From positions 2,852,001-2,916,000 of the forward strand of contig JBANDB010000001.1 in the NCBI GenBank assembly GCA_037576215.1: a stretch of DNA of 64,000 nt. Direction: 5' to 3'. A program made the position numbers and the translations under genes. This document shows positions 7,415 to 31,738 of this stretch, piece after piece (the stretch's first letter is position 1; every line of letters begins with the position of its first letter). Origin of the DNA: Armillaria gallica. Taxonomy: Eukaryota; Basidiomycota; Agaricomycetes; Agaricales; Physalacriaceae. Under the pieces are notes generated by a model. That model saw only the letters and a list, made by a program, of their open reading frames with translations, ran no database searches and was not told the origin of the DNA.

Positions 7415-7418
7415 CCGG

Positions 7419-9094: not shown

Positions 9095-9110
9095 TCCCCC
9101 CTAAACTTTT
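9095..9110 (-). promoter_or_regulatory. Polypurine tract next to LTR2
   Basis: On the minus strand the sequence AAAAGTTTAGGGGGGA abuts the LTR start TGATGAGCC with no spacer. This is the position and composition of the plus-strand primer of an LTR retrotransposon, and it fixes the direction of the element as minus. Confidence 0.75.
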
Positions 9111-13141: not shown

Positions 13142-14992
13142 ATGTCTACTTCTGCTGCTCAAACCATTCCATCTCTCATCTCCCTTGTCAAGCGTGCTGA
13201 CGCCGTCTTGCAAGTCTCTCTCAAGCCCAACGCGCAATTGTTGAGGCTCACCACCTACTTTGACAAGGCAGTACACATCAAGGTAAATTGCCGTGCTCCT
13301 GTGCGGGTTTTCGTGCTCTAATTGATGTTGAATAGTGCCAGATCAAGGCTTACTACCCATCCGCTCTCAAGGAAGAATTCTTTAAGACGTTCGAAGCTGC
13401 TGTTGATGGCTGCGTCTCTAAGTTCAACTTCCACAAGACTTGGGACACTATGCTTAAGATTGAATCTGACCGTCTCAAGGTTTCTGTTGGTGGTCGGTAC
13501 TCCATCTCCGGCAACCAAATCTTGGACGCTCTGGAGGTCCTCCCTCCCTTGCGTTACCGTATCAACAACGATATCCAGATGTCATCTGCTCTTTTCACTC
13601 CCAATGTCACTCCTCCTAAGGAAGTTCAGACCACGCCTTTGTCTTCAGATGCCGCATCTGCTTCTGCCTCTCAGGGTGCCAACATGGTATTAGAGGAGGA
13701 AACTCCTGCTAGGGAAACTCGTGCCGTGTCTCCTTCTATGGTCTCTTCTGCAGATTGGGTGGTATGTGCTTCGAATCAATTAAAACCGTAGCATCACATT
13801 AATTTGACTTGTTACGATCTAGATGCTGTCTCTGGTTGTCGCTCCTTCCGGTGCCTTCATTGAGCAGTTTGCTGAAAAAGAAGGTACCCTCAAGGATGCC
13901 AGTCAGATTGGCAAGAAGATCACTGATCTGTATCGCCACTCTTTCAACAAGGCTGACCTCCAGTACGGCAACACTTTCTGTGCCTATTGCTCAGGCACTC
14001 CTAGTCATCCTGCTCATCGATGTCCTGCTTGATCCACCAAGGTATGTTTTCTTTTTAATCCACGTTTTCTTTTGTATTGACATGAATCTGAGGCTGTTTG
14101 TCCTTGTGGGCCTTGCATTCTTGAGGGCACTGAGTGCACTTTTGCCAGGCTGTCTTCGGTCTGCCACGCTTGCCATAAATCTGTGACTCGCCGCTGCATC
14201 GGAGGCCTTCCTGACCAGCAAATCCTTTTGATGCCGTTCAAGGATCCCCATCTGGAGGACGATCAAGATATCCTCGACATTATTGATGAACTCATCGACA
14301 CCAATCCTTATGGAGCTAGTAAGTTCTTGTCTTCCACGTTTTCTGGTCTGCGGTTACTAATTCCATGCGTTTACAGAAATTTCGGGCATCCTTGGTGATG
14401 ATCCTCATACGGAATCGATTGTCGACAATGCAAAGGCCTATGTTGGGGTGAACTTCCAACAGTTTGCTCCTCATGGACCCGAGTCCATAGCTTCTTTGGT
14501 GAATACAAAGGAGGCTTACTACCAGCAGTTGGAGTCCAACACTTGCAATCTCTATTTGAACCTGAAGCTTCATCACATCCTTGTCCAACATTACCATCTT
14601 GTTATGGTTAAACTCGATGAAACGCGTGCTCAAGAGGAAGCAGAGGCTAGTACTGTGGCCAAGATGAAGACTGGCAATCACGCAACGTCTTCTTCTCACA
14701 AAACCTATGTTCCTTGGTGGAGGAATAAGCACCAGCGCTTGGGTCATGGCCATAGCAAGAACTAGTCGAAGAACAAGGGCAAAAAGGAGGATTGGAAGGG
14801 TAAAGGTAAAAATGAGGCCGCCCAGTACATTAAGGAATGTGCTGGGTGGGGTTGTGACCATAATAACTGTGATTCTAACATGGAGACTCCAGACCCTGTT
14901 CCAGCTCTTTGTACTTGCCGCAGTTGGGGTAGTTGTGGTGAAGCTAACTGTCCTTCTAAAGGCAGCTGGACTCTGCCTCCCCAGGCATCTGT
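13142..14992 (+). pseudogene. aORF2-A: antisense zinc-cluster gene, cassette A, truncated
   Basis: Exons 13142-13282, 13336-13761, 13823-14041, 14093-14318 and 14377-14992 match the intact copy in cassette B exon for exon (141, 426, 219 and 226 nt, then a shortened last exon). Two premature stops are present: TGA at 14030-14032, where cassette B has CGA, and TAG at 14763-14765, where cassette B has CAG. The last exon is cut by the start of LTR3 within the Cys-rich C-terminus, about 100 nt before the normal stop. The protein content is otherwise as described for aORF2-B. It is a decayed duplicate, not an active gene. Confidence 0.85.
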
Positions 14993-16665
14993 TGATGGGC
15001 CTAAGACTTCCGTGGCAACGGCAACACCAACTCGGAATGAGCTTGGTTAATTAACATAGTGGCACGGCAATCAAGGTGATCGTGTGTGCGAGTGGTTCAG
15101 GGCACCTCCATGCAGTAGAACAATTCCTCTATATGCAAGAATACACTGTGACTTTAAGTCTGCGAAGTAGTACTGCTTGGGAGTCGAGTACTAGATGCTA
15201 TGGCTTCAAGCCGGTAGGGATCTCTCGAAATGAGAGGGAATGAAAACGGGTATGACATGAATACCACGAATCCGTATGAGAAAACGTGCTGCAAGACTAG
15301 AAAACATTGCTGGACGGTAATCGGAGCAGGGTGAACGATGGAGAATAGACTAAATGGTCGGCAATAATCTGTGGGCGAGCGAGGCGATGAGAAAATGGTG
15401 TGGGGACTGCAAGTGGCGAAATAAATGTGGAATGAGGTGCTGAAGGTGGGCTGGCGAGAGAAAACGTGGAACTACGAAAACTGGTGGCGATACTGGTCCT
15501 ATACGATGCGATGGTGCTGAGTCAATGTCGAAACTTGTCTGGTACTGAAACGATCCTATCCTATGTCAAACTAACCTTCAAGTCCACTCGGGGGACTGAT
15601 ACTATACGAAAACTTGCTGAACTGATCCTAAGTCTGCTCTGAGACTACCCAAGTGGGCGACGATAACGATGGTGAAAGTGAAACTGTAAAAACTCCAATG
15701 GTGCGAAAGTGAAACAATGACGGCCTATAAAAGATAACGGGGGCGAGGTATAGCGCGGTGATCACATATTGGCACAGTATGAGTGTGCACCAATAGTGTT
15801 AAGAGCGAAGAGCGCATAGCAAAGGACTCTTCACAGTTAAAACTGTGAGATAACTCTGGTGAGCTCAAGAGTCAACGTGCGATCAAGAATATGCTGGTGC
15901 AAATGGTATATTGCTGTAGAACGGTGAATAAACGTTGTTTACTGGCGATAGACTAGAGCGTGACGATAATTGACGTAGTCTGGGGTCAACTGGAGATGAA
16001 CCGCTCTCCAACTATGTTTTCTAGCTAGTTTTTATACTACAAGTACGAATTTATAAATAGAGTATATATGCGAGACTTAGTAAGGCCATAAAGCCTTGGC
16101 TTTGTAAAAATCGTAGGTAACATATGGTCCTTGGTCTTCTAAAGTAACAGCAACTCGTCAACGTTGCCGCGTATGGATGTGAACCGTATGGGGTCATTGA
16201 GCGATGCACAGATCATTAGGTGCTGTTTAGCTGCGGATTACTTGAGCAATAGTTGTTGTGCTGAGGAGTACACGTGGGGTAATGTTTTCTCAAGGCCTTG
16301 GTGAAGTAACAGCCTTAGTAAACACGGTCTGTGGTTGCCATAGCTGGGAAGGTACTCGCTTCAATCACGTCATTTTCATTAAGTGATCAATGAGCGTGTC
16401 GACTGAGTGCTTCTGAGTGATACGTCAATTCTGTATGGGGATGATTGTCAATCGAAGGTGCCTTGCCGTGATGAAGTACGGCAATTATGATGCATGGCAA
16501 GATGGGATGGATAACAAAGCACGTAAGGAGTGGTTGCCGTAGGATGAAAGTGGTATCAATGTGCGTGCAATCATTGGTTTGCTGAAAGGCCATTGAAAGG
16601 ACAGTAGCATTAATTAGCAGGCAAAATCTGCGAATTCTGAGCGTACAGAGCCTGGAGGCTCATCA
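14993..16665 (-). mobile_element. LTR3, internal LTR of the compound element
   Basis: It has the same TGATGGGCC...GGCTCATCA ends as LTR2 and LTR4, at 1673 bp. On its right it is followed by a polypurine tract and cassette B, so it is the 3' LTR of the complete 16.7-kb element LTR3-LTR4. On its left it joins aORF2-A inside an exon, without a primer site or gag; the joint shows short similarity to the sequence in cassette B (GTTGA against GTCGA). It differs from LTR2 and LTR4 mainly by C/T and G/A changes, and is the most divergent of the three. Confidence 0.9.
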
Positions 16666-16681
16666 TCTCCCCTAAACTTTT
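16666..16681 (-). promoter_or_regulatory. Polypurine tract next to LTR3
   Basis: The minus-strand AAAAGTTTAGGGGAGA abuts the LTR start TGATGAGCC directly, like the tract at LTR2, with one G/A difference in the G run. Confidence 0.75.
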
Positions 16682-17286
16682 ATTATGTTACTCGGGAACA
16701 TAAGACTGATGTATGAGTAACCGTTTTCCCATGAGAAGTCAGAGTTTTGGGCTCTGTTGCCAGGAGATAACGTGGTGGCTGTACGATCTATCTGATATTG
16801 GTGATCGAATTGCTATAGACGCGTTGGTGATCTAAAGATAGACACCGTTAATTGCTGTTCACAGGCACGGAAGTCTTCATATGTCTTCTCGTTTCACAAC
16901 GGAATCTTCTGTGACACGTGGAGGAGTGGAGAACTTTCTGTTGCCGTGTGACAAGTTGGACTTAGAGAAATTTTCCATTCCTCTCTTTTGCCTTCTTACT
17001 TTCACTTCACCCTCTCATTCCCCTCTATTTGCACAATCATCCTCTTTTCTTTTGCTCGTTGTTAGGTTCACAAAGACGCTCTTCCTCCTCTACCTCGGAG
17101 GTGAGTACTCTTTTCTTGGACACCATCTGTTACACAGACAGATCCTTCCATTTTGACACGTACTGACATTCTCCTTCGGTTTCACTGAAGGTTTCTCAGT
17201 GTCGTACCCTTTGCTCCTTCGTACTTCACCGGTGTTCAATGCTGGTCAAGCTATCCGACGCCCGACTGACCTGTCGACTTCACGAA
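16682..17286 (+). promoter_or_regulatory. Upstream region of aORF1-B
   Basis: No supported gene. It contains TTGGACTTAGAGAAATTT at 16956 and a pyrimidine-rich stretch (16975-17100). An in-frame ATG at 17239 lies 48 nt upstream of the ATG at 17287. I chose 17287 because MAEPT is shared with cassette A at the equivalent position, but the upstream start cannot be excluded. Confidence 0.45.
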
Positions 17287-19687
17287 ATGGCTGAGCCAAC
17301 CGACCCTGCTGAACTCGCCAAAGTCCAAGCTCAGGACATGTACAATGCCGCCGCCGCCGCCGCAATCGATGATCTTTTGGACGACTTTCCCAATCCAACT
17401 TGGGATTCTACGAGGATGGATACCTGGCTTATCGATGCTGTAACTCACTGGTCGGCAGCCGGCATTGTTAGCAAGGAGTGGTACAAACTGGAGTACAGTT
17501 TGATAGCGCGAGTGCCCGACCTATCCATGGATAAGGTGACTTTTGCGTGTATGGAGTTTAATGAGCTGGTCGAACGAGCGGTGTGTTTGTTATCTGCTAT
17601 TTCTGCTGATCTCTGACCGATGCTTTTTAGCTTGATTATAATCTTGACGTTGTGCCTTTGCTGGTTCGTCGTGCGCCAGCTAAACGTTCCAAGACAACGC
17701 CTTCTCAACCACTTCAAAATACTGCGGCATCGGGTTCTCGAACGACGACTCCAACTCCTTTGGCTACGTCTTCCAAGCCTACTACTCCAATTCCGCCGCC
17801 TATGGAAACACGAATTAGCGAGCCGAGTACGGCAAAGCGCGTGCCTCCTCCACGTAATCAAATCATCCGGAGTTCAGTGCCTCGTCTTAATCTTTTGGCT
17901 GTCAGCCCTACAGCTCCTGCGCCCTCGACTTCGAATTCCGGGTCTTCCAAGAAACAAGCTAACCAACTGCCTGCTGATAAGGCTACCGGGGCCCAGCAGC
18001 AAATGACTCAAAGGAAGGTGAAGCCTACGCCTATCACCGCTGGTTCTGCCAACATCGCCTTTCTTCCTGATACAACTTCGCCGCTACACCAGAGGCCTGG
18101 TAAACCCGTCAACGTCGGTCCACCTATTCCCGCTGCGAGATTGGAGGCGTCTGCTCGATCATTGTCAGCTAAGCTTTTGAGAGTAGATGGTACGTTTTCT
18201 TGTACTTCTTTTATTAATGTTGTAGTGACTTAGAATTTTTTTTTTTCAGCAGCCACTTGTGCTTCGGTTATTCCAGGTCCTAACCCTGCTGAAGAAGGTA
18301 GCATTGCTTCACTTCCTGGAGTTCACGAGGCCTTATTTTTACCGGGTACAGATGACGAGCTGGAGCAAGTCCAAGGAGATTTGGTAGAGGACGAGCGAGC
18401 AGAAGAAGTAGCGGGTACCGATGGTGAAGACGACGATGTTGGTGGTCTTAATGAGGATGACGAGGAAAGTCCTCCTCCTACCAATATGGCTCGACGTCTT
18501 CAAAAACCCCATACCGAGTTTGTTTTTGACGACCTTACTGGTGATTTCGATCCTTACCCTACAATTTTCCTTCCTAGACGTTCTGTTGTCCAAGAACAAA
18601 ACCCGCGCTGCTCTGCTTGTCCCCACGCCTCTACTTTGAATCCTACTGCTGTGTACCTCAAAGTCAACCAAGGATCTAAGTTGGATTCAAGGAAGAAAAG
18701 GAAGGACACGAAAGGCAAGGATAAGGCGACAGATCCCTCCGTCTCCCTCAAACGTACTCGTGACGACGACGACAGCACTCCGAATGTCAAAAAACCAGTT
18801 ACCAAGAAATTGGAGTCCAAAGATACTAAGGTTGCCGATGATCAAGGTACGTAATCCTTTGGCGTTTTCGTTCGACAATTAATTCTCTTTGTTAGTCGTT
18901 CTTGCTACTCCCGCCGTCCGTAAGCGCAGACCCGGTCCTGCTAAACTGCCAATGGTTACTTTGGGTGTCAGTGGTGGAGGCTTTGGCGAGAAAGTCCCTT
19001 CCACTGCAAAGGCTGTCGAGAACGGCCTTAAGAGTATTGGCATCCTTGAAGTCGAGGAGGACTTCGGTGCTTTTGTGAAGGTGGATGGCCATTATTGGAA
19101 TAAGGATGTCGCTCCTTTTGTTGGGGAACGCATAAGTAACATTCCATTTTTCATTATCCAGCGGTTGACTTGATGTTTTTAGTACACCGAGTGTTGTGAC
19201 CACTGCCGACACCTGGGAATGCACTGCCACAAGTTCTTGACCAATACGGTCATTTGCGTGCATTGCCATTATGCCAAGTTGCCTTGCAAGGTAAACGGCG
19301 TCCCTGCCCTTAATCCCATTGACCATTATCGTCCCAAGTCCTATCGTATGTTTTCTTGTTCCCTTTTGTGATCCTGTCCTGATCCATTTCCTAGGAACCC
19401 TGAATGCTTTTGAGGGGGCTCTCAACACCCTTGCTCAGCACGCCGATTCTATTGAGGACAGCATTGTCAATCACATGGCTGGCCTTAATGTCTTGACTCA
19501 ATTAAACGGTCTTCGGGTTCAAGCCGGGCGCCTTCGTGAGTGCGCTGTTTATGATCAGGAAGATGACGCTGAAGGTGGTGATAGCCATGGTAAGGATGAT
19601 GATTCAGGTGCTGAGGTTGAGGTTCCAGAGGACGTCGCGGAAGGTGTTGCCAGTCCTTCCAAGAAAAGAAAGCATAAGTTGGGTTGA
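17287..19687 (+). CDS. aORF1-B: antisense Zn2Cys6-like protein, cassette B
   Basis: Six exons: 17287-17580, 17631-18189, 18250-18846, 18896-19131, 19183-19345 and 19395-19687, about 713 codons. Introns are 49-60 nt. There is no in-frame stop in the exons. Order: an alanine-rich N-terminal helix region; a Ser/Pro/Thr-rich exon 2; an acidic exon 3 with DDLTGDFDPYPTIFLPR and then a Lys-rich patch; a glycine-containing domain (VSGGGFGEKVPSTAKAV, YWNKDVAPFVGE); a C-x2-C-x6-C-x9-C-x2-C-x6-C cluster at about residues 566-597; an acidic segment; and PSKKRKHK near the end. The spacing fits the fungal Zn2Cys6 consensus, but the cluster is unusually far from the N-terminus. One defect: the donor of intron 4 reads ATAAGT instead of GTAAGT at 19132. 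It lies antisense to the gag-pol of its element. Role unknown; a nuclear nucleic-acid-binding factor is an inference. Confidence 0.75.
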
Positions 19688-20598
19688 GCGGTGGCAACTG
19701 GGACCTTGGTCGCTGATAGACGTCGTCTTTTGGGAGCTTTGCTCCGATTATTTTGGACTTTTTATATACAGACTTGTAGCGCGCCTTTGGGCCATTATTG
19801 TTTTGTATTTGCATGTCGTCACCCCTATGAGGGTTAAATAAAAATCATATTTTCTTGCAGTTTTGTGTGATTTATTGAGATTTTTGAGTGAATTTTTGGT
19901 GAATTTGGACTTAGAGAAGTTTCAGCAGCTGGGGCTCACATGCTTGGGTTCATGTGATCATCCACCTTGGGCTGTTTCTTGAAATAATTTCTCCAAGTCT
20001 GAATTGCCGTGAAATTGAAATGGTAAGGAATGTGGATTGCCGTGGTTCTGAGCCGTTGGCCTTTGGATTCGTTGTGTTTCGTGTTACTGGTCATGAGTTT
20101 TCGTTACTGAAGTATGATTTTGGTGATATCTCCATTGTGTATAGTCAAATTGACAGTGGAGCGTGGTATTTTTGTTGTTAGAAATGATATTTTCATAGTT
20201 TTTCATGGAGTATTTCGTAGATTGAAAGGTCATTTCTTTCATGATTTCGTTACTTTTTGCCCAAAAATGTAGTGTTGAAAAGAATGCATGTTTTTGTCCT
20301 ATGAACAACATGGGGACCATGTCTCTCCCCCCTAAACTTTTTAAATCTTTGCTGGCCAAGGCTGAAAAGATTTAAACTGAGGTTCGAAGACTTGTAATTT
20401 GAAAGTGAATGCCACTGAGTTTTGAAAGTTGAAAACATGTGGTTGGACTCCAAGCTGCATTCCGTCTAGTGTACAATCCAAGCCCGATAGGAATTTTCAC
20501 GTAAATGCAATGAGGTGAGTTCTTCTTCGAGTTTTCGTATAAAGGGAACGTTTTCTCATCGTTGTGTCCTCAGAATCATCGCATTTCACTGAATCGCC
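19688..20598 (+). promoter_or_regulatory. Spacer between aORF1-B and aORF2-B
   Basis: There is no supported gene in these 911 bp. Content matches the cassette A spacer: a probable 3' end of aORF1 (TTTTATATACAG, GTTAAATAAAAATC near 19760-19850), an inverted repeat with GACTTAGAGAAGTTTC and TTTCTCCAAGTC arms, and the internal polypurine tract copy. Short open frames in this stretch are not accepted. Confidence 0.5.
20326..20341 (-). repeat. Internal copy of the polypurine tract, cassette B
   Basis: TCCCCCCTAAACTTTT, 16 of 16 identical to the tract beside LTR2, lies between aORF1-B and aORF2-B. It is followed in both cassettes by TAAATCTTTG, which is not LTR sequence. Confidence 0.8.
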
Positions 20599-22537
20599 AT
20601 GTCTACTTCTGCTGCTCAAACTATTCCATCTCTCATCTCCCTTGTCAAGCGTGCTGACGCCGTCTTGCAAGTCCCTCTCAAGCCCAACGCGCAATTGTTG
20701 AGGCTCACCACCTACTTTGACAAGGCAGTACACGTCAAGGTAAATTGCCGTGCTCCTGTGCGGGTTTTCGTGCTCTAATTGATGTTGAATAGTGCCAGAT
20801 CAAGGCTTACTACCCATCCGCTCTCAAGGAAGAATTCTTTAAGACGTTTGAAGCTGTCGTTGATGGCTGCATCTCTAAGTTCAACTTCCGCGAGACTTGG
20901 AACACCATGCTCAAGATCGAGTCGGACTGTCTCAAGTTTTCTGTCAATGGATGGTACTCCATCTCCGGCAACCAAATCTTGGATGCTTTGGAGGTTCTCC
21001 CTCCCTTGCATTACCGTATCAACGACAATATCCAGATGTCATCTGCTCTTTTCACTCTCAATGTCACTCCTTCCAAGGAAGTTCAGACCGTGCCTTTGTC
21101 TCTGGACGCTGCGTCTGCTTCTGCCTCTCAGGGTGCCGACTTGATATTGGAGGAGGAAACTCCTGCTAGGGAAACTCGTGCCGTGTCTCCTTCTATGGTC
21201 TCTTCTGCAGATTGGGTGGTACGTGCTTCAAATCAATTAAAGCCATAGCATCATGTTAATTTGACTTGGTATGATCTAGATGCCATCTCCGGTTGTCGCT
21301 CCTTCCGGTGTTTTCATTGAGCAGTTTGCCGAAAAAGAAGGTACCCTCAAGGACGCCGTTCAGATTGGCAAGAAGATCACCGATCTGTATCACCGCTCTT
21401 TCAACAAGGCTGACCTCCAGTACGGCAACACATTCTGCGCCTATTGCTCGGGCACTCCTAGTCATCCCGCTCATCGATGTCCTGCTCGATCCGCCAAGGT
21501 ACGTTTTCTCTTAAAATCCGCGTTTTTCTTTTGTATTGACGTGAATCCAAGGCTGTTTGTCCTTGTGGGCCTTGCATTCTTGAGGGCACCGAGTGCACTT
21601 TTGCTGGGCTGTCTTCGGTCTGCCATGCTTGCAATAAATCCATGACTCGCCGCTGCGTCGGAGGCCTTCCTGACCGGCAAATCCTTTTAATGTCATTCAA
21701 GGATCCCCATCTGGAGGACGATCAAGATATCCTCGACATTATTGATGAACTCATCGACACCAATCCTTATGGAGCTAGTAAGTTCTTTTCTTCCGCTTTT
21801 CCTAGTCTGCGGTCACTAATTCCATGCGTTTTACAGAAATTTCGGGCGTCCTTGGCAATGATCCTCATACTGAATTGATTGTCGACAATGTGAAGGCCTA
21901 TGTTGGGGCGAACTCCCAACAGTTTGCTCCTCATGGACCCGAGTCCATAGCTTCTTTGGTGAATACAAAGGAGGCTTACTACCAGCAGTTGGAGTCCAAC
22001 ACTCGCGATCTCTATTTGAACCTGAAGCTTCATCACATCCTTGTCCAACATTACCATCTTGTTATGGTTAAACTCGATGAGATGCGCACTCAAGAGGAAG
22101 CGGAGGCTAGTACTGCGGCCAAGATGCGGACTGGCAATCATGCTACATCTTCTTCTCACAAAACCTATGTTCCTTGGTGGAGGAATAAGCACCAGCATTC
22201 GGGTCGTGGTCACGGTAAGAAGAACCAGTCGAAGAACAAGGGCAAGAAGGAGGATTGGAAGGGTAAAGGTAAAAACGAGGCCGCCCAGTATATTAAGGAA
22301 TGTGCTGGGTGGAGCTGTGACCATAATAACTGTGATTCTAACATGGAGACTCCAGACCCTGTTCCAGCTCTTTGTACTTGCTGTGGTTGGGGCCATTGCG
22401 GTGAAGCTAACTGTCCTTCTAAAGGCAGCTGGACTCCACCTCCCCAGGCATCCGTCGAGTACCAGGAGGGTGTCCCTGGTAACTATAGAGGAAACTGGCA
22501 GAGCAAGGCAGGCTCCAGTCATCGTGGTCATTACTAG
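20599..22537 (+). CDS. aORF2-B: intact antisense zinc-cluster protein, cassette B
   Basis: Five exons: 20599-20739, 20793-21218, 21280-21498, 21552-21777 and 21837-22537. They give 570 codons with no stop, and all four introns (53-61 nt) have GT...AG ends. Order: an N-terminal helical region (residues 1-110); a variable acidic Ser/Thr stretch; FCAYC with a following His-rich segment and Cys (about 241-256); a C-x2-C-x6-C-x8-C-x2-C-x7-C cluster (about 267-297) that fits the Zn2Cys6 spacing; an acidic DDQDILDIIDELID segment; a helical region with a Tyr/His-rich repeat; a basic Lys/Gly stretch (KKNQSKNKGKKEDWKGKGK); and a Cys-rich end with ECAGWSCDHNNC and CTCCGWGHC. The start is supported by the conserved ATG in both cassettes. 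Its stop lies 200 bp from the integrase stop of the convergent gag-pol. The protein family is not recognised; nucleic-acid binding is an inference. Confidence 0.85.
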
Positions 22538-22736
22538 AGTTGCTGTGGTCGCCTAGGTGGTTGTATTCAATTCATACGGACAATTTTGCAGGGGTATATT
22601 TTGAATGAGTGTCAGGGGACCAGTATGGATATACCGGTCAGAATAATTAGCTATGAATGAATGTGTAGGGGCCTCCAAAATGGAGCCCAATTATTTATAT
22701 AAAATTTTTGGTTTTTGCCAATGTCTCGAGTGAAAA
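22538..22736. other. Short gap between aORF2-B and the gypsy integrase
   Basis: A 199-bp convergent 3' intergenic stretch, A+T-rich around 22680-22710 (TTATTTATATAAAATTTT), is suitable for 3' ends of transcripts from both strands. No gene or repeat is seen. Confidence 0.4.
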
Positions 22737-23975
22737 TCAAGCAAGTTCTGCTTCATTATGCGCTCCTTCTAGATCTGGGAGGTCGTCGAGCGTACCATCA
22801 TCTGATGACATGAAGAGATCATTGATCCACATGGGTGGCACGTCAATGATCGCATTGATATCCGGTACGTCAATCTTCTTCCTGGCAAAGTACGGCAATA
22901 GCCTGAATGTGGCAACTGGTCTTGCGAAGGTCAAACCATCTAATTCACAAAGGAGATATGTGCCACCTTTATTCCTTCCCAAGATCACTAAGGGGCCCAA
23001 ATATCTGGCATGCATTTTACTATTTAGAGCCTTCTCTATCTGTGTGTTGTGCATCAAAACTAAATCTCCCTTCTGGAAGTTGAAGTCTCTGATAGAGTAT
23101 TTGTGGTCCTTCTCGAAGTTAACTGCGGCATTTCTTCTAGCTTCGTAGACTTTAGACCTCAAATGCTCAAGATCTTGAGAACGTTTGTGAAGACTGATGG
23201 CTCGGCATGCGATTAATGACGTGGTACTGATGATATTGTCTGGTGGCAGCATCAGCCATGTAGATTCGACTATGTCCATTGGAAGAAGGGGTTCTGTCCC
23301 AGTTGCAGCAAAATACAGTGAACAACCCATGCATCTCCTGATTGTTATTTGGTCTGCCCAAAATACAGAATAGGTGTTTTGACTCCACTTCTTTTAATCA
23401 CCATCAGACGCCTTAAACAGTCCTTGATGGACATCAAAGTGTGGTCTTTCGGCAATTCCATTGGCTCTGGAGTTATAACTGGAGATATGAATGTGATTGA
23501 TATGGTACTTCTTGCTCAAATAATTGATTGTGGCAACAAAGGCGGATCCGTTGTCAGTAACAATCTTGACTAAGGATCCCCAACGACATAAGATATCCTC
23601 GAAAATCCATTCTCCTAAGGTTCGTGCTGTTTCTTTGCGCAAGCAATGAAATTCTGGATAATGACTGAGTGAACATCTGCCTTGGACGATGTAACTGTAT
23701 TGTCCTGAAACTGGCATGATCATGGTGTCCATATACATTTTGGAAAACAAAGGAGCGGGAAGAGCGACGGTAGGCGGGATATAGATTTGTCGGGTTTGAC
23801 AGATTTGGCACAGATGACACATCCTTACGAACCAGGAAATATCATACTTCATATCTGGCCACCAATAACATTCCTTGATTAGTGCGTGTGTCGCATAGAA
23901 GCCCTTGTGAGCAACGTCATCATGACAAGACATCATTACTTGAATGCAACGTTCGGGGAACAAGACGAGCTGATG
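22737..23975 (-). pseudogene. G2 gypsy integrase with GPY/F-type module
   Basis: The minus-strand reading starts with a zinc-binding HHCC region (SCHDDVAHKGFYATH, then MCHLCQICQ). The core follows with MDTMIMPVSG (first Asp), KIVTDNGSAF (second Asp) and NGIAERPH (Glu), the last two about 35 residues apart. The C-terminal part has KGDLVLMHNTQIEKALN and the ARYLGPLVILGRNKGGTY stretch of a GPY/F module, then an acidic tail. TGA near 23976 (DG*HQLV) and TAA near 23395 (DGD*KKW) break it, while the three catalytic residues remain. It is the 3' end of pol and is convergent with aORF2-B. Confidence 0.88.
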
Positions 23976-25170
23976 TCACCCATCTATGTTTTTGTGCCAT
24001 AGCTTTCCTTGCCTCTCGAAGAAATGAACGGCATATTTCATGAATTTTGTGTATGCAATATCATCGAATCCTGCAGGTCTCTTGAGATATAGATGCCATA
24101 GCAATAGGTGCGTTAGCCGTTCATCTAGATGTTGTTGCTTTGCAGTACGAGGAACTGTCGAGTAAGGAATGATTTCCGTGGAATCTACGGCAACTTCTTG
24201 TTGTAGAACTTGAATTAACTTGATTGGCGAATTAACCGTAGGTGAAGTTGAATTAATAAAATGCATAAGCCTGTAATGAGTGTGTAAGAAGTCTTCCATG
24301 CTGTCTTCGGGCAAAGGAGGGTCTCCTAGTTGGGGTGGGTGTCGCGATAATCCATCTGGACCATGCTTAGAGCCTGGTACATGGACTAGAATGAAATGAA
24401 AAGATAGAATGCCAATAATCCATTGGTTAACTGCTGCTGAGGGTGCGATATCAGGGTTCTTGAGCATTCCCTTGATAGCACTCATGTCTACTTCAACAAT
24501 AAATGTAGGAAGACTGATAAGATAAATTTTGCAATCTCCTAAGGCGCGGTATAGTCCAAATATCTCTTTCTTGGCTTGAGAATATCCGCACTCGCGTTCG
24601 TTAAGTGTGATTGAACTGAATCTAGTCAAATATCAGATCTTTGGATTGACAGGGTCACACTGTGCTAGATAATATCCAACTGCGGCAGGTCCTGTATCAA
24701 CGGCAAGTATAACAGCTCCGGTTGACGTGTAACTGAGCGGCCTTAATGCCAGGCTGACTCTAACTGCGTCTTTAAGATCTTCTTGTGCGGCAATCTCTGC
24801 TGATTCGAATTTAAAAGGAACGTCTTTTCTGAATAACTTGGTAATGGGTAGAGCTCGGGTTGCAAAATTATTGATGAATATTCATAGGACTCTGATGGTA
24901 CCAATGAAGGCACACGCGTCAGAGATATCAATACAAGGTCCCCATCAAAGTATTGACGAGACAATACTTTTGAGAGGTAGTCGGCCTGCATACGTGCATC
25001 TATGACCTAGCATGGTAATTTCAGTGCAGCAAAGCTTTCTTGGCTGAAAACATGCCTCCACAATATTTCATGCGTTGGACAATTCTGTTTAGGTTTTGGA
25101 AATGTTCCCAAACAAAATGTCGAATGCCGGTATTGAGAGGAATGGTTTCGTAGCCTCCTATGATTTTGTA
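23976..25170 (-). pseudogene. G2 RT connection and RNase H, heavily decayed
   Basis: RNase H is visible from AVDTGPAAVGYYLAQ, LNERECGYSQAKKEIFGLY, and FIVEVDMSAIKGML followed by FILVHVPGSKHGPDGLSR. A spacer then leads to the integrase. Between 24650 and 25170 the RT thumb and connection must be assembled from all three minus-strand frames, so this is the most damaged part of the element. Confidence 0.8.
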
Positions 25171-26433
25171 TCAAGTTTCTGGTCCTCGAACTGGAATGTC
25201 ATCAATGTAAGGAATGGTGAACTCTGGGATTTTGGGTTGTAGAATGAAGGTAACGTCATCATGGAATATTGGTACGGAATTGGTCCAACCCATGGGTAAA
25301 GTAACGAGTCGTAGTGCTCCATAAGGTGTCTGGAAGGTGGTGAGATCGCAAGATGACTCTGCCAATAGATGTTCATTGTATCCAACGAATAAGTCTAGAG
25401 TAGCGCCGCATGCATGACCTGCGAAATGTTCTGCAAGAGGGTCTGTTGCCAGTGGTAATCCAGAATGAGCAATTGTAACTTCGTTCAACGGTTCTAGACT
25501 GTGAACTATGCAAAGACTTTTGCCATCTTTCTTTAAAACAGTAAACCATCTCGAGTGGTAGGAAGAATTGGAAGGTTCATAAACGCCTGCATCAATCTTT
25601 GTTTTGATCATACGGCAAACTTCTGCATAAATGCCTGGAGGTATAGGAATATTTTGTAGAATCCAAGGGGTGTGTTCGATGACTGGAATATTGATTGGAG
25701 GGAAGAAATCTCTATGAAAACTGCCTCTTTCTGAATCCTCCCATGTGAATGCTTTCTCCTGAACCGTCATGAAGTGATGCATGAGCTTCATTTCTTCTGG
25801 CCAGAGGAAACCATCATTATGGATGGAGTTGATGTACTCCTTGCGTTCTTGGGTATAACGTTTGGTGGGAATGAAAGGGGGTGGTGTTGGAGATAATGTA
25901 GGTATTTCGGCTAAGGGGTCTCCTCGAATATTGCGAATGATACAGAATTTATCAGGCAAGGTTGCAAGTACAGGCTTTGTTTTTAAGGCTACCGGCTTGT
26001 ACTTCTTGCCTGCGAAAACCGAGACTTTCTTAGAGAACCATGGCTTGTAGGATTGATCTCCAATAATATTAGAACCATATAGACAATACATGTAATCTCG
26101 GGGCTGGGAAACAGAACTGGAATCTGAGAAATCTTGAGGAATCTGAGTAGGAATAGAATATAACGGTAACAATTGTTCACGATCTGTTGGTAAAGAGAAT
26201 TCGGCATATGGGGTGGAACTGTACACGGTTTCGGTCGACCATAGTGATTGTGTAAACGTAGTGGGTTGGATAGGGAATTTATTAGGGTCACAGGCCGATA
26301 AATATTGGGTTGAAGCTTTTTCTGAGTCAAATTCGGAAGTGGATGCTGTGTAGGCAATAATTTTAGGTTCTTGATTCGTGTCTAATTCAATAACGAGGGT
26401 GATCTCCTCTATATCATCATTGGGTTCTTCTAG
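25171..26433 (-). pseudogene. G2 reverse transcriptase
   Basis: A 351-codon open minus-strand stretch carries the N-terminal RT fingers (PIPPGIYAEVCRMIKTKIDAG, YHSRWFTVLKKDGKS) and the palm with TLDLFVGYNEHLL and TLPMGWTNSVPIFHDDV. The catalytic YIDD box is intact in IPYIDDIPVRGPET. It stops at a TGA where relatives have arginine (CGATAC to TGATAC). A long low-conservation linker (26230-26433) joins it to the protease. Confidence 0.88.
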
Positions 26434-27261
26434 TCAATTTTCCCAGGAAAATGGGACATGGTTAAGGATATGGGGACGACCATGAGGAATCGTCAGGATG
26501 GTGGCAGTCTTGCCGGTGTTCAGATCATGGATGGTAATGGTCTGGTTTTCGTCCGAATAATTGCGAACAATGCTCTGAGTTAACGTGCCAAAGGGTCTGC
26601 CGAGCAAGATATTGTAGGCAGATTGCTGAATGACGTGCACTTGCAAGTATAGCATGATATCTCCAAACAAAAATGCAACATTTCGTGCTAGACCCAAGGA
26701 ATAATTTGTAGTTCCATTGGCTGACTGCATTTCCAATATAACCGTAGGATCATAGATCAACCCCAAGCACAAGCACACAGCTTCTGACATGGAGATTACT
26801 TGTGATCCGGGATCAATGATGCACTCGACTTTGAGCTGATGATCCACCACTGGGACGATGGATCTTAATGAAATAGAATCTGCTGTGCATTTCAAGGGTC
26901 CGATCTTCTCCCCTTTCTTGATGCGAGCTTCATACAGGTCTGGGACGACTGATGATCCTGCTGGCAGTTCCTTCTGCACATTACTGGTCTGCTCAAAAGT
27001 CTGCATGAAATTATTCAGCATGCTGTATAAAAGAGTGGAAGTTTTGCCGTTTTCGTGGTCTTCTGGCGCCTTTACCATGATCTCTACGGTTTTGGGTCCA
27101 GTAAACAGTAAAGCTACCTCCTTTTGGAACTGTTCCATGGTATTTGGCACTTTGCGCTTCGTGTTATCCTCCTTAATCATTTCCCTGATTGCTGGTGATA
27201 AAGAATATAACTCTTGATGCGACAATGTGATTGTGGAGTCAAGTGCATGCTTGTAGACTTC
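26434..27261 (-). pseudogene. G2 aspartic protease
   Basis: The 263-codon minus-strand frame contains VECIIDPGSQVISMSEAVC, in which the catalytic motif is D-P-G, a variant I associate with this group of basidiomycete gypsy elements, and the second half YNILLGRPF. The frame is bounded by stops at both ends that read as CGA-to-TGA changes (SHVA*EVYK upstream and WEN*LEEP downstream). Confidence 0.82.
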
Positions 27262-28440
27262 TCATGCAACATGCGAACCTTCTATCGGCACCCGCGTCCT
27301 ATAAGCAGGTTCATTGTCTTTGGGACACTTGCGGACATCTGGCTTTGCACCTGTGTTACGAACTGCTGGCGGTGCATAATTGGCTGGCTTTGCTGCGGCA
27401 AATGGATGAGTATCTTTGGGGATGAGCTGGGCTACATGCTCCTTGACTGGCACATGCTCGGGTACTGCCGTGACAGTCTTGGATGGATCGCGTTGCGGAG
27501 TAGCAGGTGGGATGTAAGATGGAAATTTGGAACGAATATCCTGATCATTGCCATGGACTACGGTCTTAGCTTTCTCGAATTGACATGGAGAATAAGTCTC
27601 AATAATAGCTGTGGCAATTTCATCGTCTTGCTTGGTCTGAGTAGGTATGGCAATATCATCTTCATCATCTGAATATTCAACTAAGTCGGGCATGCCATCA
27701 TAATCTGGGGTAAGATCTTGATTGAAGTGATCGCGAATCTTAGGTATGGCAACCTCCTGCTCATCATCAAGCATGGCTTCTTCAGTGGCCTTCCGACTAG
27801 TATGAGTTTGTCGACCAACTGCCTTAGTAGGTTCTTGCAGAACAGCAGCCTCCGCTTTTGCTGCAGGAGCTGCCTTCTTGGTTGGTCTGTGTTTAAGGCG
27901 GGGAACCTCGACTATGACTTGGCGAATCATAGTATCCATAGTGTCTGTGGTATTCGGACTGGACAAGTCTTCTTCGGCAACATGCATAAACTGTTTGATG
28001 CCCTGGATTTCTTTTCCAATAGCTTCAGATTTGGCAATGAGTGCCTTGAGACGTTGACGTGCATCAATCCTGGAAACGGGCATGCTAAGTGACTGAGCAT
28101 CTGCGTTAACTGGTGAAGAACGTTGCTGGCTAAGATGTGGAACTGGCTCGACAATGGCATTCATCAGCTGATTGACGATGCCAATCTGGCCTGGATTCTG
28201 ATGGTGCCATTCCTCAATGCAATCTTTAAGCCAAGTGCCTTGGAGACCTCTAGGAACCCAAGCGCCAGTAGACAGGACAATCTTCCCATCTATATTACGC
28301 CTGCATTTCCCTTCTTTAATCATCTCCTCGACTTTGAGACATTCTCGAATAAAATGACCAATTTTGCCGCAGAAACTGCAATTTTGGCCAGTTGCCGTAT
28401 TAGCATAACTGCTCTGCTGTGGTGGACCGGACGAAAACGA
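27262..28440 (-). pseudogene. G2 Gag nucleocapsid knuckle and long charged spacer
   Basis: The zinc knuckle NCSFCGKIGHFIREC (C-x2-C-x4-H-x4-C) lies near 28350-28392. It is followed by a 350-residue charged spacer with Lys/Ala-rich (KKAAPAAKAEAAVL) and acidic (YSDDEDDIAIP) segments, leading to the protease. Only one stop occurs at the C-terminal end of the spacer. The spacer is unusually long for a gypsy Gag-Pol junction. Confidence 0.8.
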
Positions 28441-29235
28441 TCATTGCTGAGCTTTCTGGAATCGATCATTCGAGTTTAGCTGCAATAATGTCTCGCCAAG
28501 TTTAATGAGCTGATTAATATGCTCCATCTTGACTTGTGGTTCCACAGGTTCCTCTTTGACGTGAACGATTGGCTGAGGTTGTGAAATGGGACTGGGATAT
28601 GGCATCTCTGATGGTCTGGCTGGACCAGCATCACAAAAACTCTGAATAGGCATACTGCTAAGAGTGCTTTCTCCTTTATTTGTGCCTTGTAGAATGAACT
28701 GAGCAGCTGCATAAATATCGCTGAGGTCGTAAGGGTCTGCTGGATGATGGTCTGGTAATTTGATCTGGAGTCGATGGGCAATGGCATCCCAAACATGGTT
28801 AGGAAAGCCTTTGCTGAACATATTGCCAGTCTCATGGTTCAACAAACGATTATTCATGACCAAATGCTTTACTTTGGGGTAGAATTCTCGATAAAACACT
28901 CCTAGGTCTGCGAGATTATCAACTTCTCACGCATATTTTCCAATGATGTGCTTGAGGTTGTGTCTCTCGTATTTACAAGTGGTGCTAGCATCAGGATACT
29001 GAGCAACTACAGCATCCTTGAAATTTTTGTAGGTTTTGCTGGCGTCACTATACTTGGGCAAGCTCTCCCAAAACTCAGAGATGACAAGACCAGGATAGTA
29101 GATAAACCACTTCTTTTTATCGGCTTCTGCGTTTATACTATGATGGGTGAAAAGGCCTTTGATATCACTGATATAACACATCAATTCGCGTCCAGGACTA
29201 ATTTCATCAATGATATTTGGAGTGCTCTTCTCCTT
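28441..29235 (-). pseudogene. G2 Gag capsid
   Basis: Minus-strand segments YYPGLVISEFWESLPKY, FKDAVVAQYPDAS, LADLGVFYREFYPKV and NMFSKGFPNHVWDAIAHRL correspond to the helical capsid of gypsy Gag proteins. A Pro/Gln linker and a short amphipathic helix follow. Two internal stops are TGA codons at CGA positions (KYA*EVDN and AQQ*SFSS). Confidence 0.8.
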
Positions 29236-29796
29236 TCAGAAAGGCATAGATGCTGCTGCCATGGCTGCAGGTTGTTGTACTGGCTGTTGAACTGGAGGTT
29301 GTACTGGGGGCTGTACAGGTGGTTGTGCGCTGGGTTGCGCTACGGGGGCTGGTTGTTGATTCAGATTGACTGGTGGTAAGATGGGAAAAATGGGAAAATA
29401 AGAGGTGGAAGCCTCTACCGGTGGATCAAAAGTAAGACTTTGTTTGAAGGACTCGTCCTTGATATCAAAGTTTATAGTGGTAGCAGAATCTGGTACTAAT
29501 TCGTCACTAGATTCGACGGATTCTTCTTGTCGATAATTGGTAAACGAGATGGATTCTACGTGATAGCCTCTGAAAGCTTGTCCAGAATAAGGTGTGTCAG
29601 GGGCTGTTCCATAGTTTGAACCAAAGAGTTCTGCGGTAACTTCAGTTTCTTTGTTGTCTTCTGGTCCAGAAAACGACAAGTTCTCTCTTTCAGAGATGTC
29701 TAATTCTTCAGGAAACGGGGATGTGGGAGATTCAACGAAAGACCCAGGGATGGGACTACGAGGGGAGTCTGGTAACGGGGTTTCTGTAGCAAGCAT
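29236..29796 (-). pseudogene. G2 Gag N-terminal region
   Basis: This minus-strand start of the polyprotein is 240 bp downstream of the primer site candidate. It is acidic and low-complexity, with a Pro-Val-Gln tandem (QPPVQPPVQPPVQQPVQQP) near its end. TGA directly after SMPF interrupts the frame into the capsid. The start Met was chosen because the leader from LTR4 to here has no earlier in-frame start. Confidence 0.7.
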
Positions 29797-30036
29797 CGAA
29801 GATGACGCTTCAGATGATGCTAAATGGGCTGTAGATTCTTGTAACTGAAGACATGCAGAGGTATTTTGAAGGCCTCTGCCTGGAACTGGGACGTAAGGTG
29901 TTTTACGTTTGAATTTTCATGAAATGGTGAAGAATTCGGGTTTGCAGCAAGTATAAGCTCACTATGAAGGGCGAATTAAAAGGTGATAGGTGTATATAAA
30001 CGCGATCAAAGAATTGATCTGGGATGTGAACTGATC
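29797..30036 (-). other. G2 untranslated leader
   Basis: A 240-bp leader lies between the primer site and the first Gag codon. Nothing else is recognised. Confidence 0.5.
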
Positions 30037-30054
30037 CCCTCGCGGTGGGCTCCA
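30037..30054 (-). promoter_or_regulatory. tRNA primer-binding site candidate of G2
   Basis: On the minus strand, four bases inside the LTR4 end (CATCA then TTTC), the sequence begins TGGAGCCCACCGCGAGGG. The TGG start pairs with a tRNA CCA tail. I cannot name the tRNA by eye. Position and TGG start are what is expected for the 5' LTR of a minus-strand element, and agree with the polypurine tracts at the other end. Confidence 0.6.
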
Positions 30055-30058
30055 GAAA

Positions 30059-31734
30059 TGATGGGCCTAAGACTTCTGTGGCAATGGCAACACCAACTCG
30101 GAATGAGCTTGGTTAATTAACGTAGTGGCACGGCAATCAAGGCGATCGTGTGTGCAAGTGGTTTGGGGCACCTCTGTGCAGTAGAACAATTCCTCTATAC
30201 ACAAGAATACACTGCGACTTTAAGTCTGCGAAGTAGTACTGCTTGGTAGTCAAGTACTAGATGCTATGGCTTCAAGCTGGTAGGGATCTCTCGAAATGAG
30301 AGGGAACAAAAATGGGTATGACATGAATACCATGAATCCGTATGAGAAAACATGCTGTGAGACTAGAAAAACGTCGCTCAATGGTAATCAGAGCAGGGTG
30401 AACGATGGAGAATAGACTAAACGGTCAGCAATAGACTATGAGTGAGCGAGGTGATGAGAAAACAGCGTGGGGACTGCGAGTGGCGAAATAAACATGGAAC
30501 GAGGTGCTGAGGGTGGACTGGCAAGGGAAAATGTGGAACTATGAAAACTGATGGTGATACTGGTCCTATACGATGCGAGGGTGCTGAGTCGATGTCGAAA
30601 CTGGTCTGGTACTGAAACGATCCTATCCTATGTCAAAACTAACCTTCAAGTCCACTCGAGGGACTGATACTATACGAAAACTTGCTGAACTGATCCTAAG
30701 TCTGCTCTGAGACTACCCAAGTGGGTGACAATAACGATGGCGAAAGTGAAACTGTAAAAACTCCAATGGTGTGAAAGTGAAACAATGATGGCCTATAAAA
30801 GATAACGTGGGCAAGGTATGGCATGGCGATCATGTATTGGCACAGTATGAGCATGCACCAATAGTGTTAAGAGTGAAGAGCGCGTAACGAAGGACTCTTC
30901 ACAGTTAAAGACTGTGGAATAACTCTGGTGAGCTCAAGAGTCGACGTGCTATCAAGAATATGCTGGTGCAAATGGTATATTGCCATAGAACGGTGAATAA
31001 ACATTGTTTACTGGTGATAGACTAGAGCATGACGATAATTGACATAGTCTGGGGTCAACTAGAGATGAACTGCCTTGTAACTACATTTTCTAGCTAGTTT
31101 TTATACTACAAGTACGAATTTATAAATAGAGTAGATATGCGAGACTTAGTAAGGCTATAAAGCCTTGGCTTTGTAAAAATCGTAGGTAACATATGATATT
31201 TCATCTTCTAAAGTAACAGCAACTTGTTGACATTGCCACGTATGGATGCGAACTGTATGGTTTTTGTTGAGCGATGCATGGATCGTTAGGTGCTGTTTAG
31301 CTGTGGATTACTGAGCAATAGTCGTCATGCTGAGGAGTACGCATGGGGCAATGTTTTCTGGAGGCCTTGGCGAAGTAACAGCCTTAGTAAACACGGTCTG
31401 TAGTTGCCATAGCTGGGAGGGTACTTGCACCAATCACGTCATTTTCATTAAGTGATCAATGAGCACGTCAACTAGGTGCTTCTGAGTGATGCGTCAATTC
31501 CATATTGGGATGATTGTTGATTGAAGGTGCCTTGCCATGATGAAGTACGGCAATTATGCTGCGTGGCAAGATGGGATGGATAACAAAGCGTGTAAGGAGT
31601 GGTTGCCGTAGGATGAAAGTGGTATCAGTGGGTGTGCAATCATTGGTTTGCTGAAAGTCCGTTGAAGGGACAGTAGCATTAATTAGCAGGCAAAATCCCC
31701 GAATTCTGAGCATACAGAGCCTGGAGGCTCATCA
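30059..31734 (-). mobile_element. LTR4, right terminal (5') LTR of the compound element
   Basis: It has the same 1676-bp length as LTR2. About 14 differences occur over the first 690 bp, almost all transitions at CpG-type positions. The minus-strand TATA-like TATAAAAACTAG is near 31094-31105. It is followed on the left by the primer site, so it is the 5' LTR that would drive gag-pol. On the right it borders the CCAG target duplication inside G1 gag. Confidence 0.9.
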
Positions 31735-31738
31735 CCAG

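What the first reader, a model, noticed from the sequence alone, without database searches (positions are those of the whole stretch)
14993..31734. Gypsy retrotransposon carrying two spliced zinc-cluster genes antisense to gag-pol
Seen: between the integrase stop and the polypurine tract lie two + strand genes with six and five exons, opposite to the minus-strand gag-pol. Primer site, polypurine tracts and LTR orientation all place them inside the element. Known: extra antisense ORFs between pol and the 3' LTR are described for some plant gypsy lineages. I know of no description of such a two-gene, Zn2Cys6-like cassette in a fungal element. Inference: the products may regulate the element, for instance by countering silencing or controlling LTR transcription. 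Because the introns are in the antisense direction, they survive passage through the genomic RNA.
Basis: partly seen in the sequence, partly recalled or inferred. Interest (0 to 1): 0.92.

Follow-up and report, generated by a model that had tools for sequence, protein, structure and literature searches.

The report
Retrotransposon with a swappable antisense gene
A jumping gene in a mushroom genome (likely honey fungus, Armillaria) carries two extra intron-containing genes on the strand opposite to its own machinery, and one of them comes in 14 versions, each less than 90% alike, among 19 otherwise similar copies, versions that were apparently traded between copies and are likely kept diverse because rare ones escape the host's silencing.

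Summary
The cassette is real and lies inside the element: two + strand genes (six and five exons) between integrase and 3' LTR of a roughly 16.7 kb Ty3/gypsy-type family. Three copies elsewhere carry the cassette between their LTRs. aORF2 has dN/dS 0.25, like integrase (0.23), and GT..AG at all four introns in 19 of 19 copies.

The main point is new. aORF1 is hyperdiverse: among 19 copies it forms 14 clusters at 90% identity, while LTR, intergene, aORF2 and integrase form one each. Three young elements (LTR pairs 99.6% identical) are 97-99% identical in aORF2 and 94-95% in LTR, but 60-67% in aORF1. Fourfold sites in aORF1 exons are 45-57% identical, against 91% in integrase; the protein is still constrained. 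Versions recombine and resemble those of other Armillaria species. Two copies of the polypurine tract flank aORF1, also in the one sister-subfamily copy examined. Hypermutation is contradicted. Rare-variant advantage against silencing is inferred. Antisense ORFs in this place are known (plants, Botrytis Boty); an exchangeable ancient-version antisense gene was not in what I searched.

The parts
7419..9094 (-). LTR of copy I (3' LTR); true partner of 30059-31734; flank 7415-7418 CCGG
   Evidence: 97.1% identity to 30059-31734; flanks
9095..14992 (+). Cassette of copy I: own polypurine tracts at 9095 and 12868, 18-bp repeats at 9385 and 12461, an aORF1 of N-type C, and an aORF2 cut off at 14989
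14993..16665 (-). LTR of nested copy II (3' LTR), inserted in copy I's aORF2
16666..16681 (-). 3' polypurine tract next to the LTR (one change from the 16-mer of the other 18 copies)
   Evidence: 19 of 19 copies
16956..16973 (+). 18-bp repeat TTGGACTTAGAGAAATTT, left border of the variable block
   Evidence: 19 of 19 copies with up to 3 changes
17020..19840 (+). Hyperdiverse block = aORF1 gene with adjoining untranslated sequence
   Evidence: mean identity 0.55-0.86 in 60-base steps here against 0.89-0.97 outside
17287..17580 (+). aORF1 exon 1 (variable N-terminal domain; types A, B, B2, C among copies)
17631..18189 (+). aORF1 exon 2 (Pro/Ser-rich; low-confidence, unstructured in the model of homologue P0018)
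18250..18846 (+). aORF1 exon 3 (acidic and basic stretches)
18896..19119 (+). aORF1 exon 4; donor uncertain in this copy
19183..19345 (+). aORF1 exon 5: C-x2-C-x6-C-x9-C-x2-C-x6-C zinc-cluster-like motif
   Evidence: Pfam Zn_clus below cut-off
19395..19687 (+). aORF1 exon 6: predicted helix and basic C-terminal end
19905..19922 (+). second 18-bp repeat, about 65 bp beyond the right border of the variable block
20326..20341 (-). second, internal polypurine tract
   Evidence: 19 of 19 copies, 17 exact; sister copy L039 has its own duplicated tract
20538..20543 (+). TATAAA upstream of aORF2 (read from sequence; untested)
20599..20739 (+). aORF2 exon 1
20793..21218 (+). aORF2 exon 2
21280..21498 (+). 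aORF2 exon 3 (first Cys/His cluster)
21552..21777 (+). aORF2 exon 4 (second Cys cluster, C-x2-C-x6-C-x8-C-x2-C-x7-C)
21837..22537 (+). aORF2 exon 5 (predicted helical, then basic Gly-rich tail with Cys)
22737..23963 (-). integrase (broken here into two open stretches)
   Evidence: Integrase_H2C2 3.1e-13
23976..27225 (-). RNase H, reverse transcriptase and protease pieces (broken frames)
27262..29796 (-). gag-like open stretches; no Pfam match in the three sent
30036..30054 (-). primer-binding-site-like TGGAGCCCACCGCGAGGGG, 4 nt inside the 5' LTR; tRNA not identified
   Evidence: tRNA search did not complete
30059..31734 (-). 5' LTR, belongs to copy I; flank 31735-31738 CCAG

Best explanation
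This Ty3/gypsy-type retrotransposon family, in what is likely an Armillaria genome, carries two spliced antisense genes between integrase and its 3' LTR, and the first gene, aORF1, is a multi-version, apparently ancient module that seems to be passed between otherwise similar elements by recombination and is likely kept diverse because rare versions escape homology-dependent host silencing. Shown by sequence: position, antisense orientation, intron signals, coding constraint on aORF2 and on the aORF1 exons tested, deep divergence of aORF1 on much more uniform backbones, mosaic versions, and two copies of the polypurine tract on either side of aORF1. Inferred: the block is exchanged during reverse transcription (the internal polypurine tract would start a separate plus-strand segment that covers aORF1) or by gene conversion through its conserved borders. 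Predicted: the aORF products are nuclear, aORF1 is a DNA-binding protein with a zinc-cluster-like motif, and they promote expression of the element in trans, so that an element whose aORF1 sequence is rare would escape small-RNA or pairing-based silencing while keeping the same protein function.
For: Cassette inside the LTRs; 29 of 36 aORF1 matches have aORF2 beside them. Coding: aORF2 dN/dS 0.25 against 1.04 and 1.38 in shifted frames, integrase 0.23; aORF1 exons 1, 4, 5, 6 dN/dS 0.05-0.15 for same-type pairs. Diversity confined to aORF1: mean pairwise identity LTR 93.2, aORF1 65.3, intergene 91.4, aORF2 92.6, integrase 95.0; fourfold-site identity 0.45-0.57 in four aORF1 exons, 0.87 aORF2, 0.91 integrase; fourfold transversions 0.18-0.28, 0.021 and 0.003; 14 clusters against 1. 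Uncoupled genealogies: aORF1 against LTR, intergene, aORF2, integrase rho 0.14-0.28, Mantel p 0.06-0.20 (18 copies), while those four among themselves give 0.60-0.77, p at most 0.002; with window copy I included aORF1 values are 0.15-0.38. Young elements with different versions. Mosaic L036. Not hypermutation: six same-version pairs, chosen by aORF1 similarity, average 97.0% in aORF1 and 96.0% in integrase. Versions intermixed among species. Duplicated polypurine tract. Host attack: 102 of 105 LTR-pair differences are transitions read as C-to-T, 74 at CpG; Argonaute and DNA-methylase matches in the genome.
Against: No transcript or small-RNA data. The zinc cluster is below Pfam's cut-off and the models are poor (mean pLDDT 45 and 38). 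Silencing escape does not by itself explain why aORF2, gag and pol stay uniform. Version sharing among species is partial: 18 label changes on 56 leaves against a shuffled mean of 26.5 and minimum of 21, so species structure exists, and this genome may be close to A. gallica. The weak positive aORF1-LTR correlation (p 0.06) is not excluded. Internal polypurine tracts are not proof of exchange: Ty1, Athila4 and Calypso have them too (PMC2829016, passages).
Confidence: 0.45

Rival explanations
1. Protein-level recognition: aORF1 is a factor whose variable N-terminal domain must match, or must avoid, a partner (a self-encoded copy-number control factor of resident elements, or a fast-changing host factor), so rare protein types win.
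For: Four N-terminal types, about 25-45% identical to each other (types A, B, B2, C); between-type dN 0.70 in exon 1 against 0.22 in the zinc-cluster exon. Precedent in mind: Ty1 copy-number control (recalled, no call).
Against: Synonymous divergence is near saturation across the whole transcript, including exons with conserved protein, and introns and untranslated sequence diverge too, with sharp borders; within types the protein is conserved (dN/dS 0.05-0.15).
Confidence: 0.25
2. No selection for diversity: one successful backbone repeatedly picked up aORF1 from a standing pool of divergent relatives or introgressed elements by template switching, and the pool is simply old.
For: A sister subfamily with a divergent cassette exists in the same genome; mosaics show exchange; the internal polypurine tract brackets the block.
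Against: Recombination should affect all segments, yet only aORF1 is old (LTR, intergene, aORF2, integrase one cluster each). Among 36 aORF1 matches none with over 55% exon-4 identity lies away from this family.
Confidence: 0.2
3. The antisense transcripts act as RNA, making double-stranded RNA with the genomic RNA to limit transposition; the proteins are secondary.
For: Antisense transcription across the 3' part is expected from the gene layout; discussed for plant aORFs (PMC7264820, parts 1-2 of 3 read).
Against: dN/dS 0.25 for aORF2 and 0.05-0.15 for aORF1 exons indicate that the proteins matter.
Confidence: 0.05
4. Targeted hypermutation of aORF1, as in diversity-generating retroelements.
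For: Divergence is confined to one block with sharp borders.
Against: Pairs that share a version are not more divergent in aORF1 (97.0%) than in integrase (96.0%); mosaics of whole stretches.
Confidence: 0.02
5. Captured ordinary host genes.
For: Homologues are annotated as host hypothetical proteins in Armillaria.
Against: In this genome 34 of 36 aORF1 matches sit with aORF2 or with an antisense integrase; one of the two others is a decayed relic, the other (C13:1736512) was not examined.
Confidence: 0.03

Closest known systems
[quoted passage not shown]
   Same: Position between pol and 3' LTR, antisense, long internal region; nuclear or DNA-binding products proposed (PMC7264820 parts 1-2 of 3 read; PMC11963269 passages)
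   Different: What I read describes no introns in these antisense genes, no two-gene module of cysteine-cluster proteins, and no gene whose versions are swapped between similar copies
Boty of Botrytis cinerea with antisense gene brtn
   Same: Fungal gypsy-type element with an antisense gene in the same place (Zhao et al. 2011, not read, seen as cited in PMC7264820 and PMC8365987)
   Different: brtn is one gene; its sequence relation to aORF1/aORF2 was not tested (no sequence at hand); no hypervariability in the passages read
HTLV-1 HBZ / HTLV-2 APH-2 antisense genes
   Same: Antisense gene with a nuclear product; HTLV antisense promoter in the 3' LTR (passages of PMC11963269, PMC7264820; splicing and transcription-factor role of HBZ recalled)
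   Different: No homology claimed; single gene; no zinc cluster (recalled); no swapping
Athila4, Calypso, Ty1 and Sireviruses with extra polypurine tracts
   Same: Second or multiple polypurine tract in the internal region; in Athila4 and Calypso in the linker of env-like elements (PMC2829016, passages)
   Different: Here the two tracts lie on either side of a hyperdiverse antisense gene
Loci under balancing selection (fungal mating-type HD genes, het genes; recalled)
   Same: Deep versions shared among species, with diversity confined to one gene block
   Different: Here the locus is inside a mobile element and is multi-copy within one genome

Membership tests
LTR retrotransposon, Ty3/gypsy order | LTRs TG..CA, short target duplication, PR-RT-RH-IN order | tested here: met
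   LTR ends, and 4-bp duplications exact at five insertions and with one change at two; PR, RT, RNase H, IN order on the minus strand; RNase H and integrase zinc domain above Pfam cut-off, PR, RT and IN core below
[quoted passage not shown]
   aORF2 conserved like integrase, aORF1 in protein though not in DNA
Antisense aORF between pol and 3' LTR (aORF-3R) | Sequence homology to a described aORF-3R (TRP28, brtn) | tested here: inconclusive
   No TRP28 (PF04195) match listed among 30 aORF1 and 9 aORF2 proteins at E 0.5; brtn sequence not available
Fungal Zn(2)-Cys(6) binuclear cluster | C-x2-C-x6-C-x5-12-C-x2-C-x6-8-C spacing (recalled) | tested here: met
   aORF1 exon 5 in most of 24 copies and in sister copy L039
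Fungal Zn(2)-Cys(6) binuclear cluster | Pfam PF00172 score over cut-off | tested here: not met
   10 of 30 aORF1 homologues match, best E 0.052; 12.4 bits against 21 for the member shown; aORF2 no match. So not filed as a member.
Fungal Zn(2)-Cys(6) binuclear cluster | Zinc and DNA binding | not testable with these tools
   needs protein assay
Locus under balancing selection | Genealogy far deeper than flanks | tested here: met
Locus under balancing selection | Versions shared among species | tested here: met
   types A, B, B2 in A. gallica, A and B in A. nabsnona, A in A. mellea; 18 label changes on 56 leaves, species structure not absent
Locus under balancing selection | Stable intermediate frequencies in populations | not tested
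   no population data

The most novel reading that the evidence does not exclude
A transposable element with a balanced, immune-evasion-like locus: an antisense trans-acting gene is kept as many ancient nucleotide versions of one conserved protein, passed as a block between elements through a second polypurine tract, because the host silences by sequence identity and only rare versions stay unsilenced. It would be a retrotransposon gene behaving like an S-locus or mating-type allele series, the first I know of.
Probability: 0.33. Interest if true: 0.92.

Novelty: new variant of a known kind. Interest (0 to 1): 0.82.

Why it matters
Genes of a transposon family normally share one history. Here one gene has a history apparently many times older than its neighbours in the same copies, while its protein is conserved. 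That is a footprint expected if hosts select against common sequences, and it makes a standing question testable: does homology-dependent silencing impose frequency-dependent selection on transposons? It also suggests that proteins annotated as host Zn(2)-C6-type genes in Armillaria may often be parts of mobile elements, and gives a fungal system for asking what antisense genes do in LTR elements.

Tried and rejected
Rejected: one intact element at 14993-31734; host-gene capture; hypermutation; CpG decay as the cause of aORF1 divergence, since fourfold transversions are about 60 to 95 times more frequent in aORF1 exons than in integrase. Led nowhere: Pfam and PDB for function; structure models too poor for a fold search, which I did not run; the profile search of the protein database named only Armillaria and Guyanagaster, besides unnamed records; a search for the primer tRNA did not complete. 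The 10 open-access paper searches listed no report that I recognised as this cassette; I saw listings for all and opened five papers (PMC7264820 parts 1-2 of 3; PMC11963269, PMC5408684, PMC8365987, PMC2829016 passages). Subscription papers are not covered. Not examined: aORF1 match C13:1736512, and integrases C11:3075042, C6:4251400, C19:308301 without a nearby aORF2 match. One search stopped with an error after printing the aORF2 window values that I cite.
Full report
WHAT IS THERE. The window is C1:2852001-2916000 of an unnamed 86 Mb genome in 28 contigs. The named homologues of the cassette proteins come from Armillaria and Guyanagaster (several records are unnamed), so the genome is likely an Armillaria; I did not identify the species. 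The family has a 1.67-1.69 kb LTR with TG..CA ends and about 700 candidate LTR places (774 and 689 candidates, 40 scored each). Between the integrase stop at 22737 (minus strand) and the LTR at 14993-16665 lie two + strand genes: aORF1 (six exons, 709 aa as modelled) and aORF2 (five exons, 570 aa).

THE BOUNDARIES. LTR 7419-9094 is 97.1% identical to LTR 30059-31734; LTR 14993-16665 is 90.8% identical to it. The outer flanks are CCGG and CCAG; 14993 is preceded by CTGT. Sequence 12143-14989 is the cassette of copy I, 90% identical to 19593-22452. So copy II landed in the aORF2 of copy I and its 5' LTR, and probably its gag-pol, were lost. Three other copies (C1:4930195, C7:3113771, C1:1925261) are collinear over about 16.7 kb with the cassette inside. 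C7:3113771 has an exact 4-bp duplication, C1:4930195 one with a single change; only one flank of C1:1925261 was fetched.

THE GENES ARE REAL. I compared 19 copies (17 fetched loci and both window copies; L022, L028, L031, L035, L037 and L038 were left out of the 23 loci because the LTR, cassette or integrase is truncated or interrupted). aORF2: dN 0.049, dS 0.195, ratio 0.25 over 171 pairs; shifted frames 1.04 and 1.38; two integrase pieces 0.23. One reverse-strand frame also gives 0.33, as expected when codon third positions face each other. All four aORF2 introns have GT and AG in 19 of 19 copies, with intron lengths not held to multiples of three. 10 of 19 copies have one or two stops in aORF2, so many copies are decayed. 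aORF1 exons: same-type dN/dS 0.15 (exon 1), 0.07 (exon 4), 0.05 (exon 5), 0.11 (exon 6), in 22 to 24 copies.

THE SURPRISE: aORF1. Mean pairwise identity is 93.2% for the LTR, 87.7% for the stretch next to it, 65.3% for aORF1 (range 50.9-99.0), 91.4% for the intergene, 92.6% for aORF2 and 95.0% for integrase. gag-pol of four copies shows no 400-base window below 92.7% mean identity (lowest single pair 90.5%). Identity falls at about 17020 and recovers at about 19840, that is, over the aORF1 gene and adjoining untranslated sequence. Fourfold-degenerate sites: 45-57% identical in four aORF1 exons, 87% in aORF2, 91% in an integrase piece. Fourfold transversions: 0.18-0.28 per comparison in aORF1, 0.021 in aORF2, 0.003 in integrase. 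So synonymous sites are near saturation while the protein is conserved. At a 90% single-linkage cut-off there are 14 aORF1 clusters among 19 copies, 6 for the stretch next to the LTR, and 1 each for LTR, intergene, aORF2 and integrase (18 copies for integrase).

EXCHANGE, NOT FAST MUTATION. The elements of L009 and L011 are 98.3% identical over 6.7 kb of gag-pol, 97.2% in aORF2, 95.1% in the LTR, but 66.8% in aORF1. L011 and L024: aORF2 98.6%, LTR 94.3%, integrase 98.2% over the 386 bases held, aORF1 62.5%; L009 and L024: 97.1%, 94.0%, 98.9% over 526 bases, 60.1%. The LTR pairs of these three elements are 99.63%, 99.58% and 99.62% identical over 1575-1663 bases, so all are young. Conversely L024 and L027 share an aORF1 (95.9%) on backbones 92.1% identical in aORF2. 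Six pairs that share a version (chosen by aORF1 similarity; three involve L011, L021, L033) average 97.0% in aORF1 and 96.0% in integrase: aORF1 does not mutate faster. L036 is 94-98% like L021 from about 17066 to 18266 and 87-96% like L025 after about 18466; 8 of 171 pairs meet my mosaic criterion. Identity matrices of LTR, intergene, aORF2 and integrase agree (rho 0.60-0.77, Mantel p at most 0.002, 18 copies), while aORF1 agrees with none of them significantly (rho 0.14-0.28, p 0.06-0.20; 0.15-0.38 with window copy I).

OLD VERSIONS. Exon 1 comes in four types (A 16, B 2, B2 1, C 3 of 22 copies). Types A, B and B2 occur in A. gallica, A and B in A. nabsnona, A in A. mellea (type C was not sought outside by its own search). 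On a tree of 56 N-domains, species labels need 18 changes (shuffled mean 26.5, minimum 21); on 55 C-domains 15 (24.8, 19): species are intermixed but not at random. The genome studied may be close to A. gallica, which weakens that one comparison.

BORDERS. A 16-base polypurine tract stands next to the LTR (18 of 19 exact, window copy II one change) and again between aORF1 and aORF2 (17 of 19 exact, two with one change), and not on that strand in the gag-pol halves of three copies. A sister-subfamily copy (L039; integrase 83% identical in protein; 71% in DNA) has both genes in antisense, with the same cysteine spacing in aORF1 and a different polypurine tract, which is again duplicated in the same two places; of the roughly 340 LTR bases fetched there only those at the edge match. 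An 18-bp repeat borders the block in 19 of 19 copies with up to three changes; in L039 the only match has four changes and lies elsewhere. Extra internal tracts are known in Ty1, Athila4, Calypso and Sireviruses (PMC2829016, passages).

HOW IT LIKELY WORKS. Shown: antisense spliced coding genes under constraint; exchange of the aORF1 block between backbones, read from incongruent and mosaic sequences. Inferred: exchange occurs through template switching or conversion in the conserved borders, helped by the internal tract. Predicted: aORF1, with a zinc-cluster-like motif, a long helix after it and a basic end, acts in the nucleus. Pfam Zn_clus stays below cut-off and the model is poor, so I do not file it as a member. 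Why diverse? Selection on one protein part should leave the highest divergence near it; instead the whole gene is divergent, with conserved protein in exons 4 and 5. That fits selection by nucleotide identity. The host has Argonaute-type and DNA-methylase-type matches, and LTR pairs of four elements differ mostly by transitions read as C-to-T (102 of 105, 74 at CpG), so these elements are likely targets of cytosine methylation or directed mutation. But a block that recombines mainly at its borders would also diverge as a whole, so protein-level recognition is not excluded.

COMPARISON. [quoted passage not shown] What differs: two multi-exon cysteine-cluster genes, one of them an exchangeable series of deep versions between two polypurine tracts. 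None of ten open-access searches listed such a case that I recognised.

I recounted against the calls; one search was added to give the gag-pol and LTR identities of the young elements.

Noticed in passing
LTR insertion sites, window and L002-L034: Of 15 insertion sites counted (14 of this family, one of a related LTR at window 9-1778), the middle two bases of the 4-bp target are CG in 11 and TG or CA in 4 (CG is 2.5% of window dinucleotides). Not counted: flanks at window 34673, L038, L041 and a second L002 site, which fit, and L035 (TATC), which does not. Integration seems centred on CpG.
   Followed up: partly
LTR pairs of four elements: 102 of 105 LTR-pair differences are transitions read as C-to-T, 74 at CpG: methylation-linked decay or RIP-like mutation in a basidiomycete.
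   Followed up: partly
window 21791-22090: A smaller peak of divergence inside aORF2 (mean identity 0.86-0.89; dS 0.37 at codons 286-380 against 0.13-0.23 elsewhere in the gene).
   Followed up: no
C7:5903471 (L040): Isolated, apparently decayed aORF1 relative with no LTR, integrase or polypurine tract match in the 7 kb fetched: likely an old relic.
   Followed up: yes
P0014 (A. gallica): An annotated protein joins the start of aORF2 to the middle of aORF1, so some public gene models may span nested or rearranged copies.
   Followed up: no
window 45320-46046 and 52323-53047: A 0.73 kb inverted repeat, 97% identical, unrelated to the finding.
   Followed up: no
window 9-1778, minus strand: An LTR-like stretch of a related family (about 77% identical in parts) in opposite orientation with flanks GTGA on both sides.
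   Followed up: no
own genome: Many Argonaute (Piwi) matches, 38 pieces over at least a dozen places.
   Followed up: no
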